Assembly: GCA_030549335.1 (NCBI GenBank) | Contig: JAUKPH010000017.1 | Coordinates: 7,525,501-7,589,500 of the forward strand | Direction of reading: 5' to 3' | DNA length: 64,000 bases | From: Pontederia crassipes | Lineage: Eukaryota; Streptophyta; Magnoliopsida; Commelinales; Pontederiaceae | In this document: in pieces, positions 2,514 through 59,526 of the stretch | Layout of the letters: every line of letters begins with the position of its first letter | How positions within the stretch are numbered: the first letter of the stretch is position 1 | Made by a program: the position numbers and the translations under genes | Notes under the pieces: generated by a model | The model's input: the letters and a program-made list of their open reading frames with translations, nothing else | What the model was told of the DNA's origin: nothing | The model's database searches: none

Positions 2514-4107
2514 TTTAAAAATTAGGATAACATAACAAGATTCAACTCCAAGATATAATTGAGAGAGGTGTCGGGTTCAAGTTTTCTTTCTTTTTTTTTG
2601 GGTTAAAGTGTTTGATTATTCATTTAGTAAATACCACGTAGTCAGTAACGGAATCAGACTTCAAATTCAGAGGGGCCAACTATATATACTTCAATATATA
2701 TCTTCATATTTTTACTCATATCTAATACATACTATATAGGCATGTCAAAAATTGCAACGTGCTTATAATATCTGATGTCAGTGGCTTGTGTTCAAATGTT
2801 AAATACCTCATTTTTATGGCAAGTGCATTTTTTTGTGTTCTTTATGGCTGCTCGGTTTGCCGGACAAACATGCTTTCGGTCATGACATCGAGCTGCCATT
2901 GTCAGACCCCGGTAACGGGAACACAAATATAATAATTATCAGTTAATTTGATTTTAAATCAAAATTTTGGTTAATTAATTGTAATCGACTAATCGATTTC
3001 AATTAATAATTTTTGTTATCCGTTAATCAAACTGAAATTGAATTGAATAATTCGATTCGATTAATCTTTAAAAATTTGATCGGTTAACCAACTATTACGA
3101 TGAAACCGTACTCAGCCTTAACTGTGATAATCGTGCTCAGTCCTAACATGCATGCCACTTTTTGAGTTGCATCCTTTCTGTTAGCTGTTATTAGTGTTTC
3201 AGTCATGCCACTTTTTGAAATTTATCAGTATTTTCAGGAGGGCTACCTTCCTTCCCCAAGAAGATTGATTTTGAAGGCTGGCGAGTCATGTGCCTTTTTG
3301 TCAAATGTGAAACCAAGTACATCAAGTAACATTATGTGCATTGATGTTAATGCATATTATTGTGCATTGTAGTGCCACGCGAATTGGATCATAAGCACCG
3401 CTTTTTAGACACCGAAGCTGGTAAAAAAAAAAAGAAACTAAAATCAATCTCCAAAATGAGATTTTCAATACGCAGCTGACCGCAATGGAGAAGACCTTGA
3501 GGATGCTCTAGACCTCAGCTCCGAATTTCTTCTTGTTACCTATTTAACAAATCTGTGCCATTCACACTAATTATATCAACAGTGACCACAACAATGTTTT
3601 TTGGTTTATTGATATTCCTTACTGGCATATTTGCATTTTGGATTCTTTGTGTTCAATCTCTGTCGCAACTATTTGGTTGCCGATTCAGTTCATATTTTTT
3701 TTATGGCTTTTAATGGAAGTAAGTTTCTGGTGATGAGCTGGGATCATGAACGCTTTGTGGACCTACATACATCTTAGGGGGGCCCCCTTAAGTTTTTAAA
3801 ATTTTATTAATTACATATATAAATATATAAATTTTCTAGTTAAAATTAATGGTGACGAGCTTCACAAAAGTCAGGGGTTCGACCCCCCTATCTTTTTTTC
3901 CTCTGGTCCGTCCCTGCTTTGCAGTAAGTAATGCATCACTCCACTTTCATGTTAATGGAGTTGGTAAAGAGTTCAAGACTTTCCATGGGATTATCTTTAG
4001 AAGTTTGTCTATATCTGATTATTGTTCCCATGGGAGTTTAAGCCTACAGTTCAGTTTACAAATGTAAAAGGGGTACGCTAAATTAAAGATGCTACGGTGG
4101 TGATATA
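2514..4107. repeat. Tandem segmental duplication, copy 2, left part
   Basis: This is the left part of the second copy. It begins with the same aaaattaggataac sequence as copy 1. The stretch 2613-3351 has no counterpart in copy 1. It contains short remnants that look transposon-derived, including an A/T-rich segment with repeated ttaatcgatt-like motifs (about 2930-3110). The copy stops at 4107, where a Helitron is inserted, and resumes at 9161. Confidence 0.8.
3761..3915. mobile_element. Short insertion of about 155 bp with an imperfect target duplication
   Basis: Copy 1 reads straight through ccctttgtagtaagtaatgc near 1216. Copy 2 has extra DNA between gctttgtg (3753-3760) and gctttgca (3916-3923). 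The near-duplicate 8-mers look like an 8-bp target duplication, as made by hAT elements. The insert contains ggggggccccc near its left end and ggtccgtccctg at its right end. It has no coding capacity. The family is uncertain. Confidence 0.5.
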
Positions 4108-20186: not shown

Positions 20187-22707
20187 TTAGTCACGATGGC
20201 GCCGACTTGTGTCTCTAGAGTCACGGTGCCGACTGCCTTCGCTCCTGCGATGCTCAAACCTTTCATGCCTCTCATGCTGTGGAGACTCTTCATATCTTCT
20301 CTTACTGTCTTCATAGCTATTGTCAACCCTACTCCTCTTTTGATTTCGGCTATCATCTTCATGCCTCATTGCATTTCTGTCACCTCTGTCTCTCTCACTG
20401 TATTCCCTCTTTCTAGTTTCATGATCTCCTACAACAGCATACCTCTGTTCATCTGTAGCCCTCTTTCGCCCTCCATGTTCATCTTCATGTATCATTCCCC
20501 TGCTATCCCTGCCTCCTTTTGCATAGTCTTCCCTCCTTTGAGCTCTGGGATCTCCATCATTCCGATTGCTCCTGCTCCCGGTGGTCTCTTTCCATCTTTC
20601 ACCTTCAGCAGTACCTCTAGTCTTTATATGCTGCACTTGAGAAACAATATCAGCCTCAGCTTTGCTCTTTTTTGAATCATATATATTGTGGCTCTCTTGC
20701 CTTGTTGAGGCACTGGAGTGCTCTTTCTTAACATTGACAACATCTTTTTCACGAATTTTCCTTCTATCGTCTTCACTATCATCTGATGATGCCGAGTCAG
20801 AATAATGTTTTCTGCTTGTTCTATACTTCAGCTCATTGTTGTCATCCTTCTTTTGAATGTCATTCCTAGAATCAATCGTTTTGTGAATCTTGCTAGAACC
20901 ACTAGGCTTCTCAAGTCCTCTTCCTTTCTTTTCATCATCAGTTTCTGAGTCAGAATATTCAGAATTATATTTCTGACTTTGTGCTCCTTGCTTTTCAATC
21001 AGTTCCTTCTTGTGTTCGGCATCAACAGAGTTCAAATTTGTGACAGATCTTGTTTCCTTATTGACATGTTGAACAATGTTTCTTCTAGCCTCACCACCAG
21101 AATCACTCTCTGATTCTGAGTAGTCTGATTCATCATGCTTGTTATTTCTTCCGTGTGTCCTAGACACGTCAAAGCTCTTATGACTTCCCCTGATGGCTCT
21201 CCTCTTTCTGTCCCCTTCAGAATCTGAATCATTCCTCCCACGTTTTGCAATATGCTTAGGTCTCTGTTCTCTACTGTCATCGGCAGAACCAGTATCTGAA
21301 CTGATATAATCAGATACCTCCTTTCCAGTGGATTTTCCTTGTTTTATAGACACATTAATCATCCTCTTGTCAGTGTTTTTAATGCCATTACTTTTCTTGT
21401 TTCTAGCAACTTCAGAATCTGAATCTGAACCTGAATAGTGCGCATGTTTTTTCTGTTTGACATGGTCAACTCTTTCTCTTCTGGAGCTATCACTAGAATA
21501 ACTTTCAGAACCATCATACTGTGATTCCTTGCTTTTACTGTTTTTCTTACTCTTGTTGCTGCTCCTTGTGTCATTCTTCTTATAGTTGGCACCTTCAGAA
21601 TCTGAATCAGTATCATACCTCTTTGGTTTTGTGACATGCTCAACTTTCCCTCGTTTTATGTTGTCATTGAGCTTATCTGACTTTGAGGAATCTAATACAT
21701 CACTTCTTATTTCAATCCCACGTTTTATAGACACATCAGTCTTGTTATTTGTGATCTCTCTCTTCTTGTGCTTTGTATCTTCAGAATCTGAATCAATGTC
21801 ACGCCTCTTGTGTTTCTTCACATGCTTCGATTTCTCTTCGGTAGCTCTATGTTCAGAATCACTATCTGAATCATAATAATCTGATTCTTTGTACTTCTCA
21901 CTTTTCCTTTGCCTTTGAGATTTAACACCCATGTTTTTCTTGTTTTCATGAATTTCCCGTTTCTGGTGGTTGGCATAATCAGAATCTGAATCAGAATCAT
22001 GTCTAATGTGTTTTCTTGCACGCCTAGGCAACTCCTTTTTATCACTGTCACCTGAACCACTATCAGAATCAGAGTAATCAGATCTTTTGCCTTTAATGTT
22101 TTTTCCATGCTTAGGAATATCAATCAAGCTCTTTTTGTGGTCTCTCGTGCCAGAAGAATCTTCAAGCTCATCTTTGCGGGTGCTACTTCCATGCTTGTCA
22201 GTTCTTCCTTCAGCATGCTTACCAATCTTGTTATCCCCAGAATCCTTCTGCTTCAGGATTTTATCGTCTTTCAGCTGGTTAAATTCATATCTCCTTTCTT
22301 CTTCATTACTCCTATTACCTATGAATCTCCTCTTATCGGAATCTTCTCGTTGATCATGTCTAACACGTCGCTGATCACCACTATCCAGAGCTGCTCTAAA
22401 AATTTCTAACTGTTTCTCCTTCAATGCAGCACTTCGATGAGATTGGCTATCTGCAAATCTAAAGAAACAATAAAGAATTAATACACTTGGATAACAAGTC
22501 TGCCCATCATTTAACCCCTAAAAAATAATAAAGAAAACAAGAAAGAAACATATGAGTCATGACCAACCTTACAGGAATTAAAACCCCTTTGAAAATTCAT
22601 AGAGCTCTAGTCAAAGACACACAAGGCAAGGCAAGGCAAGAATGAATTAGTTTGGTTCTTTTTGTTTTGTCTTTTTGGACCCTACACTTGTGCATTCATC
22701 ATTCTCC

Positions 22708-28758: not shown

Positions 28759-31700
28759 TGTTGTTTCACTCAATTCTGACACACTCTCACCCATGATTCT
28801 ACAATGATTTTGCAAAATTCTTACACTCAAACTGTTTGTGTTTGAATAAACAAGAGAGTAGAACACATGAGAAAAGAATGAGGCAACACAACTTTCTGAC
28901 ATTTCATTACAATGGTTAAAATAACTGACCACTAACTCTAACTGACTCAAAATCTAACTGACCACTAATAAAAGATAGTAACTACTGCTTCTAAGACAAA
29001 GCTTTAACAAATAATAAAATAAAACTGAACACACGTAAATATGTAACAACATGTTCTAATACATCATCTAACATTTCTCCTCCTTAGATTAGAGACCTGG
29101 ACATATTCCAATTTCATGATTCAACTAACTAAACTGACGAACAACAAGAGGCTTAGTGAAGACATCAACCATTTGATCACTTGTTTTGCAATATTTCGGT
29201 GCCACCTCTTTTTCCTTTTGTGCCTCACACAAATAATAAAACCTCAGCTTAAAATGTTGTCTTTCCATGAAAAATTAGATTCTAAGCAATCACAATTGCA
29301 TCTTGATTGTCCACATACAACACAGTTGGACCATTCTCTTGCAATCCCAAATCATATAATATCTTCCTAAGACATATTGCATGCTTTGCAGCTTCATTTG
29401 CAGCAACAAATTCAGTTTCAACTGTTGATAGTGCCACAATATCTTGCTTGTTTGAGCTCCACGAGAAGCAACCCGATCCAAGTGAAAAATAGAAACCTAT
29501 TGTGCTTTTCATGTCTTCCACTGAACTACCCCAATCATATCCACAAAGCCAACTAACTTCATCTCAGAGACTGCTTTAAACTTTACACCATAACTCTGAG
29601 TCCCTTTAAGGTACATCAACACCCTTTTTGCTGCAGTAAGATGTTCCTCAACTGCATAATTAAGAAATCTTGATAGAATGCTTACTGCATACTGAATGTC
29701 AGGTCTAGTGGCTATTAGATACATTAGATACATTAAACAACCTATTATCCTTCTGTATTCAAACTCATGCTCAAATTCTTGCACATTGCTCTTGCTTAAC
29801 TTCTCTTTCTGATTAATAGGAGTAGTGACTGCCTTGCATTCTTCCATTTTAAATCTTTTTAGGATCTCTCCGGTGTACTTCCTTTGACAAATAAATATTT
29901 CGCCATCTTTCTGATGAATCTCTGTGCCTAGAAAGTAAGACATTTTTCTCAAATCTATCATTTCAAATTGCTTCATGAGTCCTGCCTTCAACTTCAATAT
30001 CTCACTCTCCCCCTCTCCTGTAACCAGCAAATCATCAACATAAATAGACACCACTACTAAACCACGTTCACGTTGTTTGTAGTATAAAGTGACTTCACTT
30101 AAACTCTTCTGAAACCAAGCTGACTAAGATAATAATCAATTTTGTTGTACCAAGCGCTAGGAGCTTGCTTCAGCCCATACAGGGATTTCTTCAATTTATA
30201 AACTTTATCTTTTCATCCTTTGACTTCAAATCCTTCTAGTTGAGCTACATAAATGTCTTCAGATAGATCACCATTTAGAAAAACTTATTTCACATCTAGG
30301 TGATAGATGATCCACTTTTTTTTAGCAGCAAGCAATCTGATGGTGTCCATGCGAGTAACAGGAGTAAAAGTATCTGAGTATTCCACTCCACTAACTTGAG
30401 CTATCCCTTCACAATTAATATGGCTTTATACTTGTTCATTGTGCCATCGGGGTTCAATTTTGTCTTCAAAACCCATTTGACACCTATAGTCTTCTTGTGA
30501 TCAGGTTTAGGCACAAGTTGCCATGTGTTATTCTTGTTGATCTTGCTCAATTCTTCTCTCATTGCAGATATCCGCTCAACATTTTCTTTTGCTTCCTCCA
30601 CAGATCCTAGTTTTAACAAAGCCACATTGCATCTAGCATAGACATATGATAGTGATCTGGTACCTCGCACAAGTAAATGATCTACTAGTTCATCTTCAGT
30701 CAAATCAAACTCATGCAAATTTGCTTTAGCCACAATGCTTTTGCTGTCAACCTTTTTCTCTTCACATGGTATACTATACCATCTCTTATCTTCACAAAAG
30801 ATTACATCTCTACTCACAATAATCTTCTGTGAATTTGGAAGTACACTCTGTAGGCTTTAGACTGAGGACTATACCCCACAAAAATAGCAGCTTCACCTCT
30901 ATGATCAAGTTTATCTCTATTAATTGAATAAGTCAAGTAATAGCATAAACAACAAAAAATTTCAGTCCATTAACCTTTGGTTTGAAGCCATACCATGCCA
31001 CAAATGATGTTTTCTTGTTGAGAGCCATAGTTGGTAGCCTATTCAACGAAGACAACAATATTCACTGCCTCTACCCAGAAACTTTGGATAGTTGCTTGCC
31101 TTAGAGCATACATCTTGCCATCTCCACAATACTTCGATTTTTTCTTTCACTTGCCCCATTCTGCTGTGGAGTATAAGGAACTGTGAACTAATGCTTTATG
31201 CCTGAGTTTTCACATATGATTTTGAATCCTTTTGAGATATATTCACCACCTTTATCAGTTCTTATTATCTTGATTTTGCAGTTTGCTTCATTCTCCACCT
31301 CCTGTTTGAACCTTAGAAATACTTCATGACACTTCATATTTTTGTTTAAGGAAGTAGACCTAACAAAACCTTGTGCAATCATTAGTAAAGGTTACGAAGT
31401 ACTTGCTTTTATTCAAAGACTCTTAAGGCAGGTCCACAAACATTTGAGTGCACAAGTTGCAGTTTCTCCTTTGCCCTCCATGTTATTTTCTGGAATGATT
31501 TCTTTACTAGCTTTCCTCGCAAGCATGCTTCACAATCAGAGACTTCACTACCCAACTGAGGCAAGTCTTCAACTAAGCTGTTCTTTTGCATAAAATGCAG
31601 CCCCTTGTAGTCAAAATGCCGTAGCCTCTTGTGCCTTAACTCCTCCTGACTTTGCACACATGTCATAGTCATGGTTTCTTCACTTGCAGGATCAAACACA

Positions 31701-32383
31701 AATGTTTTATTTTGCATAGGAATTCTGAAGAGAAGTTTTCCCTCTTCATCAGCAATAGCACACTCATTCCTTTCAAATATAATCTTCATACCTTTTTTAA
31801 CTAGTTGTCCCACACTTAGAAGTCCCACACTTAAAAGATTCAGATCTATCTTGAGAACATAATAGACATCTGACATCAACTTCACTCCTCCAGTGCCTTC
31901 AAGTAACACATTTCCTCTTCCTTCAACTTTAAGAAGTCACCACTGTTAATCCTCACTCTGGTATTGAATGATCTATCAATACAACAACAACAAAGCCTTA
32001 TCCCACTAGGTGGGTTCGGCTACATGGATCATACGACGCCATTCCGATCTATCAATATCAGTGAAAATTGTCGCATTTCCAGACATATGATTGGAACTTC
32101 CATTGTCTACAAGACATCCATCATGTGAGACCCGAGACACAAAACCCGAAGCAACAAACAATTGCTCTACTTCACCTATAGCAGTGAGCCTCTCCTTGTT
32201 GAGAACTCTTTCCTTTGCAGATCCTCTCCACATGTCACATCTTCTCATACTTCCTGCACTTCACATTTGGTCTTCTTCAATACCTAAAGAAAGGATGACC
32301 CTTCTTTCCTACTTGCAGGCTTTGTCACTTCCCTTCTTTTCTTGTGCATCAATTGCACCAGAATTGGTCTGTTGACCAAATCT
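28759..32383 (-). mobile_element. Ty1/copia LTR retrotransposon fossil, broken
   Basis: The element reads right to left. A left-hand LTR (about 28759-29073) begins TGTTAG on the minus strand, and a purine tract (29074-29086) adjoins it. The family's parts follow in copia order: RNase H (about 29282-29521), reverse transcriptase (about 29509-30820), integrase and its zinc-binding front part (about 31188-31909), and the protease/gag end (about 32040-32380). The copy is broken in at least five places. The second LTR is missing, so age by LTR comparison is impossible. It looks moderately old. A SINE fragment sits inside it, and the gag end is cut off where another LTR element starts. Confidence 0.9.
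31981..32045 (-). mobile_element. 5'-truncated Au-type SINE inside the copia fossil
   Basis: Sixty-five bases that begin with a CAA-repeat tail and contain the 3' end of the SINE seen at 15917-16104 (ccactaggtggg, tacatggatcatacgacg) in reverse orientation. It is flanked by an exact 11-bp target duplication, GATCTATCAAT, at 31970-31980 and 32046-32056. Confidence 0.85.
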
Positions 32384-54307: not shown

Positions 54308-57188
54308 GTTTATCGATCGATATGTTATTATATATTCTAACTTTTAGAATGCACAGTTCTGGTCTTCCAGATCAAGTACCACATTTAAAAGGGAATTCAT
54401 TTTGATTCGAGGATAAAATTTGACAATTATTAATATATAGTCAAGGGTGTTTGATTCGAGACCTACTCATTCTTCCATGATATCTAATTAAGTCATACTA
54501 CTAATATAATTAATCACATTATTAACCCTCTCCGGCAAAGGGAATCTCTTCACGTTTCGCTCCTGACGAGATCTCTGCATGCCATTAAATTCATTCATTA
54601 ATTAATGTATTCTCATATAAACTTTTTTTGTTTTCTTTGTGGTTTAAAGCATTCATGTAGCCACACACACATTAAAGTTAAAACTTAAATTAAAATTCTT
54701 CACATGCTTAAATATTTTGAACCGCATTTGTTATTCATATGAATGAGTTCAACTTGTACGTGATCGAGTTAAACTCTGAAAAAAAAATGTATTTTAATAT
54801 TAAGAAAAAAAATGTTACTATATAGTAGGAAGATCAATGAATTAACATGCATCAGAAACCTCGTTAATTTTGTTTGGAAATGAATTATGAGGATCAAAAT
54901 GAACTGCAGTAAAATAAACCAAGCTGTCATATATAATTATTAATTACATTGATTGACCACCTTAATTAATAGTTACTAATTGATAGCTATGAGCTGTGCC
55001 TCTAAGAACATTGTTATTGTCGCCACGCATAAGTCTCATGCATACTGTTATAAATTTTTCTCGCCTATACAATTACAATTAATTACTGAAGTTAATTAAT
55101 CAACTAAGCATTGTTTAATTAGATGCCAATTTACACGCATAACTCGAGAGCAGCGTCTCATTAGCCAGTTGACATTAATTTCTCAATGTGAATAGAACTG
55201 TAACGATTAATGGAGACTGAATGTTATTGGAGGCCAAATCCACAAAAATATTACACCTTGTTATATATATAAAAAAGAATAATTATTTCAAAAATCTATC
55301 TAGCTAGTCAACAATAGTTTGATTAATATCACTTATCCACGACATTTTCTCGTATTTACTGATGTGCCAATTGGTACGGATGTTGCAGTAAAAGTTAATG
55401 GCTCTAGCATTAATAACGCAACACATGTAGGTAAACATTTTAGTCACATTGCCAATAGTATCGCATTACGAAGGGTCTCCACCGACGTTTAATTAATTAA
55501 CAAGTGTGAAGTTTCAGCTCGTTACATTAATTACTTTGCACAATTCCTCGTTGTGTAGTTATTATATAGTTGAGTTGTATATAAACAATAATTTATATTT
55601 TTTCTCATGGTTACACTTTTGTACACGTTAGTGCATGGCCACGTACACTTAATTCCCATCTTTCGGTATATGGGAAGGAACAGCTAACAGCTTCATATAC
55701 GTGTGATATTGTTAATTATCTGCATGCACAGCAGTAAACACGTAAGTTTTTGTACTAGCATGCATGGGTACGTATTTTGTTAACTTTTAGCCTAATAAAT
55801 GATAATTAATCCTCTTAATAATTAAAATTTTAAAATAACCTTACAAGTTGATAAATTTATTATGTATGTCATTGTGAGATGGTTAAGGGATAGGGGTGAA
55901 AGTCGGGTCAGGTGATTTTTTCGACGAAAAAAATTGACCTCCAAATTTCGGATGAATTTTCGACGCATAAAAGCTCACCTCATTTTTTTGAAAAAAATTT
56001 TGATCTAGGCGGTCTCGGTTTTTCAGTTGGGACCTATTTTAAAATAATATTTTTTTAAAAATATTATAAACATTAAATATATCACGTAAATATTTTAAAA
56101 AATAAAACTTAACTCTAAGTTTAACTATTTAATGTAAATAAATCAAATAACATAATATTACATTATAATTGAAAATATTCTAGTTAACTTTGTCCAAACT
56201 TTCTAAAAATAAATTAATAACTTAATCATATTCAAGTTCAAATGTGTGAGAATAAGTAAATAATATACCTAATCTAATAAATATGAATAAGAGAAAAGTA
56301 AACTTATAAAATATTATTCAAAATTTGAAGTAATAATCTAATTATAATAATTGTGAAAAAATATTTAATTTGAGTCAAGTCCCTCCGATTTCTTTTAGTA
56401 AGGAGCCTTAATGTAAACAGGTGATTTTATTTATTTCGAAAGACCGACCTAATTTTTAGTTGGAATCCATATTTTAGATTTTTTTTCGGATTGATTTTTT
56501 CGATTTGGTTAGGTATTTTCTGTTGATAGGGTCTTACTTCCATAATAGGGGGGATATATATCCTCCTGATTTAGGATGATATAGCGTTAATATAATAACA
56601 TGTTAGCAATTAAACCAATTGAGCAACAGGAGTACATTAATTTGGAAATAACAAATGAAACAATGGACCTAGAGGCCGTGCAGTCGGGTATTCTGATAGC
56701 TAGGTAGACTGATACAATTGATAGGAGATTAACAAGTCTGTGAGCTCAGTTAGTTAGATTGACTAGTACTACATCAAAATAAACCTTAACCAGTCAAGTC
56801 CTCCTACCCTTATATATTTTCATTGTTTTTGTTAATTTTCATTCTGACTATATATGAAGTGTTATAATAATCCTAGGCACGTCAATAATATATATATATA
56901 TATATAGTGAAATATTATTCTTGCCTTGAAAACCATTCCAATTAATCTGTCTATTGGAGCGCTATATTATTCGATCTGGTCCTCGAAATTAATCAGAACG
57001 TACCAAAAAGATGTGCAAAAGTGCATGCTGCCGCATATATCGATCTGTATATAAAGCATAGATCATAATGTTAAGCATGCTCCAGGTAATATATATGTGA
57101 TTGCAGTTGCGTGGACGGATACATGCAATGCATGTTAGAAGCATCTCTGACCCTACATCTAGTACTTCAAACTCTGGACTCGATCCCC
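54303..57188. other. Gene-poor DNA upstream of the SPL gene
   Basis: AT-rich. The part 55880-56540 carries ggtgaaagtcgggtcagg and repeated ttcgga..ttttcgac motifs and looks like a worn dispersed element. I see no other gene. The last kilobase is presumably SPL promoter, but I cannot assign specific sites beyond those listed. Confidence 0.45.
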
Positions 57189-57230
57189 TTATATAATATA
57201 ACATGGCATTCATATGAGCGAGTGAGTGAG

Positions 57231-57262
<32 letters not shown>
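57189..57262 (+). promoter_or_regulatory. Candidate SPL core promoter: TATA box and GA tract
   Basis: TTATATAATATAA (57189-57201) lies about 210 bp before the ATG. A (GA)n tract (57237-57262) follows it. GA tracts near plant transcription starts bind BBR/BPC proteins in known developmental genes. Whether this one does is inference. Confidence 0.4.
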
Positions 57263-57263
<1 letters not shown>

Positions 57264-57405
57264 TCAAACTGATAACAAGGTATGACTAGTACATATAGAG
57301 TGTGTTGCTTCATATACACTTAATTTGTCAATCTTCTTAGACTTCGGGGATTCTTTTATACACAGTACAGGTCAATTAATTTGAGAGTACTTGTTCTAGC
57401 TGGGG

Positions 57406-59050
57406 ATGGAGTGGAATGCCAGAACTCCCTCCTTGTGGGACTGGGACAGTGCGCTGCCATGCGATGCTGAGGAGTACAAGCCACCAGGCGGCAGCGGCGG
57501 CGGCGGCGGCGATTGCAGCTGGGCTGCCGCTTCGACTTCCAGCTCCACCGGTTCTTCTTTTATAGTTCCGGACGTGGCAGAGGTACCATCGCCAGTGTTA
57601 GAGTTCGAGGAGTATCACAAAGGCGCCAGCGGATTAATCTTTCATGATGTGGAGCACTCATCTCCGGCAACCGTGGCCGGAGAGACGAGGTCACCGCCGA
57701 TCTGTCTGAAGCTTGGCAAAAGGACTTACTTCGAGGACGCCTCGCAGGCGGACCAGTCGGCTGTAGTAGTACTGTCGAAGAAGCCTAGAGGAAACGATCA
57801 GAGCTTGCAGCAGCAGCAGCAGCAGGCGATCTACTGCCAGGTTGAAGGATGCGACGTCGACCTCAGCGGAGCCAAGGAGTACTACCGGAAGCACAGGGTC
57901 TGTGAAGACCACACCAAGTGCCCCCGAGTAATCGTTGCCGGCCAGGAGCGCCGATTCTGTCAGCAATGCAGCAGGTGGACGACACTTTGAACGTTCTCGA
58001 TCGATCTCATTAATAGCTGTGCGGTTGTCTGCGTCACTTAACTGTTGTTTTTTTTTTCTTTTCCGTTCTTGTTCATGACGTGCTTGCAGGTTTCATGAGC
58101 TGTTCGAGTTTGATCAGAAGAAGAGAAGCTGCCGTAAGCGTTTGTCTGATCACAATGCGCGACGCCGCAAACCTCAGCCCGACATGATCTCATTCTGTTC
58201 ATCAATCTTTTCGTTGTCGACTTATGGTACGACTTGTCTGTCTGTGCTGCACGCATCAAACATTGCTGAGTGCATGCTAGTTAATTAATGTTCGATGTTT
58301 CTACTCAAGCAAAACGATTTGAGAACACGCATGCTGTTCTGATAATTGCGTGGGTAATCAATTAATTAATGCAGACGATGATGATGGTGACGATGCTGCA
58401 CATCAGATTAGCTTTCAGCGGGACAAAATCAGCACTCCTAATGGCAACATAACGAGGACTGGTGCAAGACCATCTGCATGGGGATTTCTGTATGGTTCAA
58501 AGCTCCCACAAACAAGAAGTTGGCCATTGCTGACAAATGCAGGTGAAGGACATGAATGGTCGACTGTTTGGACTGCTGTTAATAATGAAGTAATGAGGAT
58601 CCGACCGCTCAAAGGAAGCAGCACTGCAGGAATGCTGAACCAAAGTACGAAACTTTTCTTTATATCAATTATTTAGGATTCATTATTCTTCACTAAAAAC
58701 AAGAACTGAAAATATATTTCCCATTTTTTAATTGAACAGTGATTTTAAATTAACTGTTTTCTCCAGTTTCCTCGGCAGTTGCATCAGTTTCCAACTTTAA
58801 AGGAGGTCTGGATCAGCTTCCTGGTGCTTTCTCTCTCATGTCATCAAATCCTCCTAAGCCTTCATCTGATCCTGGAGAAATATCGACATCTTCCCTCTAC
58901 TTCTCAGATTGCACCAGCACACTGATTAACCCTATCCTTCATGAGTGCAAGGGGCTCTACTTCAGCCAGCCATTACTGGCAAAACCATGGACCATCACAG
59001 TCTCTTCCGCCGCAAATTACAGTGCTCTTCTTTCAGATGCACGACTTTAA
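57406..59050 (+). CDS. SPL: SQUAMOSA promoter-binding-like (SPL) transcription factor, 419 aa
   Basis: A nuclear DNA-binding regulator of the plant-specific SBP-box family, which binds GTAC cores and controls phase change, flowering and organ size. The exons are 57406-57974, 58090-58226, 58375-58644 and 58767-59050. All introns are short GT-AG introns with consistent phase. The start [15 protein letters not shown] matches the family's usual N-terminus. The SBP domain spans about 142-220: zinc 1 is C144, C149, C166, H169, and zinc 2 is C185, C188, H192, C204. The nuclear signal is KRSCRKRL...RRRK. The intron inside the SBP box, after QQCSR, is at the conserved family position. A six-glutamine run precedes the domain. 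The last exon carries a diverged miR156 site. The overall length and exon plan suggest the SPL2/10/16/18-like, miR156-type class, but the subgroup is not certain. Confidence 0.95.
58824..58843 (+). promoter_or_regulatory. Diverged miR156/157 recognition site in SPL exon 4
   Basis: GTGCTTTCTCTCTCATGTCA aligns with the standard SPL site and encodes AFSLMS where the family has ALSLLS (residues 346-351). Against the widely conserved miR156 sequence, mismatches fall opposite miRNA positions 6, 7 and 14, with a G-U pair at 15. Position 14 is mismatched in standard sites too. The homologous position is clear, but pairing in the seed is weakened. Confidence 0.75.
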
Positions 59051-59526
59051 CAGCAGCATGCAGCCGCCTGCAAGAGTACCAACTGCATGAAGCAGTGCTG
59101 CACGAATCAGCTGGCCTCCTTCGTTCTAGGCAGATGCATCCATGTTGGCGATCAAAAGGTGACAGATATGTGCAAACTAAAAGCAATTCCTGCACAGCTG
59201 CGCGCTCAGTTAGGGAACCAGAAACTTTTGTTATGATTTCTAACAATTAATTTTATGCTTCGGTAACTTGAACATTTCTGTTTTCTGTCTGTAGTTATTA
59301 ATTGGCTGAGTAAGGGAAAAAAATGGATGGATATCGATAAACTTTTGCATGTTATATATGCAGCTATTCGGTGCATTTCCTGAAGCATTAATTATTAATC
59401 TTTGCCAGTTGGAATAGACTTCCAGTGTTAAGTTAACTTCATACTGTTGTACATATATGCTAATGCTGTGGGGTATATGCAAGTGAGTTATGTTAATTGC
59501 ATATAAGTGCAGTTATCACTTATCAC
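59051..59526. other. 3' UTR and downstream region of the SPL gene
   Basis: No further coding sequence. Chance frames here do not continue the SPL protein. The first 200-350 bp are likely 3' UTR. Confidence 0.5.

What the first reader, a model, noticed from the sequence alone, without database searches (positions are those of the whole stretch)
58824..58843. SPL gene with a miR156 site weakened in the seed region
The gene belongs to the class normally silenced by miR156, and the site's homologous position is unmistakable (AFSLMS in place of ALSLLS). However, two adjacent bases opposite miRNA positions 6-7 no longer pair, and a G-U pair has appeared at 15. Two amino-acid changes come with it. 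Such mismatches usually weaken cleavage strongly in plants, so this SPL may have partly escaped age-dependent control, or a matching miR156/157/529 variant may exist.
Basis: partly seen in the sequence, partly recalled or inferred. Interest (0 to 1): 0.75.

Follow-up and report, generated by a model that had tools for sequence, protein, structure and literature searches.

The report
SPL gene pair losing miR156 control
This plant gene is an SPL-type developmental regulator whose built-in off-switch site for the small RNA miR156 has decayed, and its nearest sister gene in the same genome has decayed even further, so this small branch has probably slipped out of the usual age-dependent silencing; such losses are already known in other plants.

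Summary
In detail: 58824-58843 reads GTGCTTTCTCTCTCATGTCA, in frame in the last exon of a four-exon SPL gene, with non-pairing bases opposite miR156 positions 6-7 and a G-U at 15. The window's own genome (1.13 Gb) was searchable. The miR156, 157, 529 and 535 loci found there do not repair the pairing, and 13 loci resembling a compensating miRNA form no miRNA-type hairpin; these searches were capped, so a missed locus is possible. The nearest paralog (L088, contig C19) has a worse site (VLSLVS, score 8.5) and shares the change opposite miRNA position 7, so decay probably began before the two genes split (dS about 0.7) and is not a sequencing slip. The next relatives (L012, L015, L019, L040) keep the site (score 0-2). 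The SBP domain is under strong purifying selection (dN/dS 0.03), although the window gene's last ~40 residues look out of frame with relatives. Best reading: an SPL2/10/11-like pair that escaped most or all miR156 control by point substitution after duplication. Cleavage and expression were not testable. Losses of miR156 sites in single SPLs are published; this is a new member of a known kind.

The parts
57406..57974 (+). SPL exon 1 (start codon to donor), carries most of the SBP domain
   Evidence: gene model; same exon length (569) in L088; SBP PF03110 at aa 144-217
58090..58226 (+). SPL exon 2, end of the SBP domain
   Evidence: 137 nt in both window gene and L088
58375..58644 (+). SPL exon 3
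   Evidence: 270 nt; 273 nt counterpart in L088
58767..59050 (+). SPL exon 4 to stop; last ~40 codons look out of frame relative to L088 and L012-type paralogs
   Evidence: frame comparison by eye
58824..58843 (+). decayed miR156 site, encodes AFSLMS; expected cut, if any, between 58833 and 58834
   Evidence: cut position by the rule of opposite miRNA positions 10/11

Best explanation
An SPL gene of the miR156-regulated SPL2/10/11-like clade (clade name recalled) duplicated in an ancestor of this plant. In the lineage leading to the window gene and L088 the miR156 site decayed by point substitution: a change opposite miRNA position 7 is shared by both, position 6 is changed in both (A here, G in L088), and each then changed further. 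Argonaute loaded with this genome's miR156 should pair too poorly in the core to cut the mRNA efficiently, so the gene should be expressed largely independently of the age-dependent miR156 decline. The SBP domain remains conserved, so it is probably a working transcription factor. Shown: sequence, pairing, sister gene, clade, purifying selection. Inferred: loss of cleavage, age-independent expression, biological role.
For: Score 5.5 vs miR156a and 4.5 vs the C19 miR156, against 0-2 for the 26 other sites scored. L088 scores 8.5 and 7.5. WIN+L088 are sisters (support 94 nt and 99 aa; 100 in the 38-sequence aa tree), nested with L012/L015/L019/L040, which keep the site. WIN and L088 share 15 of 20 site bases at flank identity 0.66, whereas 76 of 91 pairs among 14 canonical loci have equal or lower flank identity and all 76 keep 18-20 (14 of the 26 loci were used and all were found through the site, so this is biased). 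SBP dN/dS 0.029, 4 non-synonymous and 22 synonymous differences. No compensating miRNA found. PMC7049721 passages: at most 1 core mismatch and 0 adjacent core mismatches in all 8 columns; 2 or more consecutive 5' mismatches abolished miR160 targeting in an assay it cites. Elsewhere in 57150-59479 (unspliced) no stretch scores below 8.5 with the five miRNAs tried.
Against: With the C19 miR156 the duplex keeps 76-77% of the perfect energy and scores 4.5, within the score limit of 7 of the 8 columns of PMC7049721 and above the energy cut-off of all 8; those rules are also set to keep only at least 85% of valid duplexes. So weak regulation is possible. The site is still somewhat more alike between WIN and L088 (0.75) than its flanks (0.66), and WIN keeps 17 of 20 canonical bases. 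No expression, small-RNA or degradome data, and no orthologs from named species. The C-terminal tail looks out of frame with relatives and C-terminal dN/dS is 0.60, a value that includes that tail.
Confidence: 0.75

Rival explanations
1. Residual, weakened regulation: miR156 (above all the C19 form, perfect to canonical sites) still represses the gene partly, by slow cleavage or translational inhibition. This overlaps with the best explanation at its weak end.
For: Score 4.5 and 76-77% of perfect duplex energy with the C19 miR156; pairing at positions 1-5 and 8-20 is intact apart from one G-U. Score and energy pass limits in most columns of PMC7049721.
Against: Two adjacent core mismatches (one search rules); the sister gene has lost pairing at position 10 too; 17 of the 18 miR156 loci read from the family search encode the weaker-pairing form.
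Confidence: 0.3
2. Relaxed constraint in a redundant, degenerating copy: the site decays because the gene is on its way to becoming a pseudogene.
For: C-terminal dN/dS 0.60 and a tail that looks out of frame with relatives; canonical paralogs could cover the function.
Against: Open reading frame of 419 codons, GT-AG introns, SBP dN/dS 0.029 with only 4 non-synonymous differences over both lineages; L088 keeps the tail frame that resembles L012.
Confidence: 0.2
3. A compensating miR156/157/529/535 variant still silences the gene.
For: An exact complement of 19 bases of the site exists at C5:30182313. Two of 13 candidate places (L095 0.56, L098 0.58) pair with a neighbouring arm slightly better than 95% of background positions.
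Against: All 13 stay within the background range (ratios 0.30-0.58; background 95% point 0.53, maximum 0.63 of 330) and below 21 known-type miRNA loci (0.74-0.91); the miR156, 157, 529 and 535 loci found have known-type mature sequences. Searches were capped: 59 of 41485 first-look candidates were scored, and places with 2 mismatches were only partly listed.
Confidence: 0.04

Closest known systems
miR156-targeted SPL2/10/11-type genes (here L012, L015, L019, L040; clade name recalled)
   Same: Same clade by SBP domain, same position of the site in the coding region, shared SSDPGE downstream
   Different: Those keep GTGCTCTCTCTCTTCTGTCA (one has GCGC at the start), score 0-2; this gene scores 4.5-5.5
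Rice IPA1/OsSPL14 ipa1 allele (PMC4811884, passages seen)
   Same: Point change in the miR156 site that frees an SPL from cleavage and repression
   Different: A recent allele of one gene; here seen in two paralogs with dS about 0.7, in another SPL clade, with several changes
Maize ZmSPL1 and ZmSPL17 (PMC6726161, passages) and SPLs that lost loci among coconut and 14 other species (PMC12389045, passages)
   Same: SPLs of targeted groups without miR156 regulation while duplicates or relatives keep it
   Different: PMC12389045 ascribes losses to gene-structure variations; here the site is still alignable and decayed by substitutions

Membership tests
SPL/SBP-box transcription factor | SBP domain | tested here: met
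   PF03110 E 2.8e-31, 108.1 bits over a cut-off of 27; 7 distinct PDB sequences matched, all named as SPL proteins
SPL/SBP-box transcription factor | Open reading frame under purifying selection | tested here: met
   419 codons, 4 exons; SBP dN/dS 0.029, whole gene 0.38 against L088; the tail is the exception
miR156-regulated SPL clade | Groups with genes carrying the site | tested here: met
   Nested with L012/L015/L019/L040 at support 99
miR156-regulated SPL clade | Site pairing to miR156 within accepted limits | tested here: not met
   Two adjacent core mismatches, scores 5.5 and 4.5, against the core-mismatch limits; the 4.5 alone would pass the score limit in 7 of 8 columns
miR156-regulated SPL clade | mRNA cut opposite positions 10/11 | not testable with these tools
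   No degradome or RACE data held

The most novel reading that the evidence does not exclude
A two-gene SPL branch escaped miR156 by substitutions before its own duplication while the encoded hydrophobic hexapeptide (AFSLMS, VLSLVS) kept its pattern, giving this plant an age-independent SPL arm beside its normal age-dependent one; the nucleotide site and the peptide it encodes would then be under separate selection.
Probability: 0.35. Interest if true: 0.5.

Novelty: new member of a known kind. Interest (0 to 1): 0.35.

Why it matters
miR156 sites are among the most constant regulatory sites in plants. A natural pair of SPLs in which the site has decayed step by step, next to paralogs that keep it, offers a within-genome test of what age control does for SPL genes, and of whether the ALSLLS peptide matters apart from the RNA site.

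Tried and rejected
Species comparison: I found no plant collection among the tools apart from the window's own genome, so orthologs were not compared; in-genome paralogs were used instead. Rfam on the window: 0 matches. Literature for the exact site or AFSLMS: 0 papers for 5 strings. One search translated exon 1 one base out of frame and was not used. A compensating miRNA: the exact complement at C5:30182313 looked paired in one fold, but the pairing shifted with the length folded and used a T-rich stretch, no inverted repeat has it as an arm, and it failed the arm test; rejected. Of 13 listed non-window places with at most 1 mismatch to the search pattern and ending in ATGTCA, 13 were tested (11, 2); places with 2 mismatches were listed only in part and not tested, and no separate search for MIR535 loci was made. 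L030 first looked like an SPL site but is the C19 MIR156 precursor; L034/L035 are MIR157-type precursors. A ~94% homeolog of the window gene: none found by protein or DNA, and the neighbour at 20187-22424 has none either, so the partner region may simply be unassembled; no weight was put on this. The site-versus-flank comparison is biased because canonical genes were found through the site. The tree is fairer, since genes without a site were added from the PF03110 search, but it held 38 of 49 sequences given (11 were not parsed by my exon rule), and 9 first-exon matches, mostly homeologs of fetched ones, were not fetched.

Full report
What is there. The window is G000:C17:7525501-7589500 of a 1.13 Gb, 43-contig genome, a plant by its gene content. 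At 57406-59050 (+) lies a four-exon gene (569, 137, 270 and 284 nt) encoding 419 aa, with an SBP domain at aa 144-217 (PF03110, E 2.8e-31). In exon 4, 58824-58843 reads GTGCTTTCTCTCTCATGTCA and encodes AFSLMS; it is the only window match within 3 mismatches of the canonical site, with 0.01 expected by chance.

Pairing in its own genome. An Rfam MIR156 search (59 of 41485 first-look candidates scored, so a lower bound; 13 places above the curated cut-off) followed by reading 19 loci gave 17 loci with mature TGACAGAAGAGAGTGAGCAC, one (C19, L066) with TGACAGAAGAGAGAGAGCAC and one MIR535 (L067). Two further MIR157-type loci (L034, L035), which that search did not return, have good hairpins, and canonical miR529 sequences occur as facing arms at four places (hairpins not folded). 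Scored by the usual plant scheme (recalled: mismatch 1, G-U 0.5, doubled at positions 2-13), the window site gets 5.5 with miR156a (mismatches 6, 7, 14; wobble 15) and 4.5 with the C19 form; the 26 canonical-type sites get 0-2. Twenty-one of those 26 are letter-identical, four are ATGCTCCCTCTCTTCTGTCA and one is GCGCTCTCTCTCTTCTGTCA; one of the 26 (L021) is a fragment in which no SBP exon was found. miR157, miR529 and miR535 pair worse with the window site (scores 7.5, 10.0 and 9.0; the miR529 form ending in CCT was not scored). Elsewhere in 57150-59479, scanned unspliced so that exon junctions were not covered, nothing scores below 8.5 with any of the five miRNAs.

No compensating miRNA found. 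The whole-genome pattern search found 383 forward and 348 reverse places within 2 mismatches of a degenerate site (148 and 141 for the reversed control); places with 0-1 mismatch were listed, those with 2 only in part. All 13 listed non-window places with 0-1 mismatch that end in ATGTCA were tested for a foldback: duplex ratios 0.30-0.58, against 0.74-0.91 for 21 known-type miRNA loci; 330 background positions gave a 95% point of 0.53 and a maximum of 0.63, so two of the 13 (0.56, 0.58) lie in the upper tail of the background. The exact complement at C5:30182313 is not in an SPL and has no stable hairpin.

The sister gene. PF03110 searched over the genome (113 exon matches) led to a gene at C19 (L081, L088). 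Its 446-aa model has the same exon plan (569, 137 and 273 nt, then the last exon), and its site reads GAGTTCTCTCCCTCGTGTCA (VLSLVS), mismatched at 6, 7, 10, 14 and 19 with a wobble at 17: score 8.5, or 7.5 with the C19 miR156. The two genes share the change opposite position 7; position 6 is changed in both, to different bases. They are sisters with support 94 (nt) and 99 (aa) (23 sequences) and 100 in the 38-sequence tree, inside a clade (99) whose other members L012, L015, L019 and L040 keep the site. Their dS is 0.71 and dN/dS 0.38 overall, 0.029 in the SBP domain (4 non-synonymous, 22 synonymous differences), 0.37 N-terminal and 0.60 C-terminal (pairwise counting). The change is therefore probably old and is not a sequencing slip. 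The shared change could in principle have arisen twice.

How it most likely works. Degradome-derived rules in PMC7049721 (passages) allow at most one core mismatch and no adjacent core mismatches in all 8 columns of the table seen, and that paper cites an assay in which two or more consecutive 5' mismatches abolished miR160 targeting. The window site has two adjacent core mismatches. In rice a single natural point change in the IPA1/OsSPL14 site perturbs cleavage and repression (PMC4811884, passages). So the window gene most likely escapes most miR156 control, and L088 nearly all. Weak residual repression through the C19 miR156 cannot be excluded: that duplex keeps 76-77% of the perfect energy and scores 4.5, which passes the score limit in 7 of the 8 columns and the energy limit in all 8, and the rules keep only at least 85% of valid duplexes. 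My odds for escape and for weak residual repression therefore overlap. All amino-acid changes in the hexapeptide are hydrophobic for hydrophobic, so the peptide pattern may be kept for its own sake; this is inference. In IPA1, deletions of 12 and 21 bp there did not harm activity, which speaks against a strong peptide role.

Results that go the other way. The window gene's last ~40 residues look out of frame with L088 and L012-type genes, whose tails resemble another frame of the same DNA (by eye). This may mark relaxed constraint or an assembly error. The site-versus-flank test (14 of 26 canonical loci) is biased by how those genes were found, and in it the site is still slightly more alike between the two sisters (15 of 20) than the flanks (0.66). 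Neither the gene nor a neighbour has a ~94% homeolog, while 12 of 14 SBP-gene pairs compared are 92-98% identical (the other two 75% and 86%), so no third copy could be checked.

Known or new. [quoted passage not shown] On the other side, PMC3727082 (part 1 of 3 read) reports the 20-mer fully conserved in the genes it studied, and PMC6517846 (passages) that all members of the targeted clade keep the site in six Oryza species. The exact site string and AFSLMS occur in no held paper (that library lacks most subscription journals). I file it as a new member of a known kind.

Noticed in passing
window about 58930-59150: The last ~40 codons of the window SPL look out of frame relative to L088/L012-type paralogs; a tail resembling theirs is readable in another frame of the same DNA.
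   Followed up: partly
L021 (G000:C11:62756500-62761500), around 2979-3713: A partial SPL copy with a perfect miR156 site in which no SBP exon was found: possible pseudogene whose RNA could still bind miR156.
   Followed up: partly
L034 (C3:14322411) and L035 (C4:34225629): MIR157-type precursors, mature TTGACAGAAGATAGAGAGCAC, with strong hairpins, not returned by the capped Rfam MIR156 search.
   Followed up: yes
G000:C7:67795674, C8:7184041, C11:66413496, C12:3906604: Four MIR529-like loci with facing arms about 90 bases apart.
   Followed up: no
G000 contig pairs C1/C2, C5/C6, C7/C8, C9/C10, C13/C14, C17/C18 (and one pair C7/C11): 12 of 14 SBP-gene pairs compared are 92-98% identical, as in a recent polyploid; the window gene, its neighbour and the C19 sister showed no such partner.
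   Followed up: partly
window 29509-31909 (-): ORFs that look like copia-type retrotransposon polyprotein pieces (label recalled, not searched).
   Followed up: no
L087 (G000:C5:25184600-25185100): Fragment resembling an L019-like SPL first exon, 85% identical over 337 bases, probably a truncated copy.
   Followed up: no
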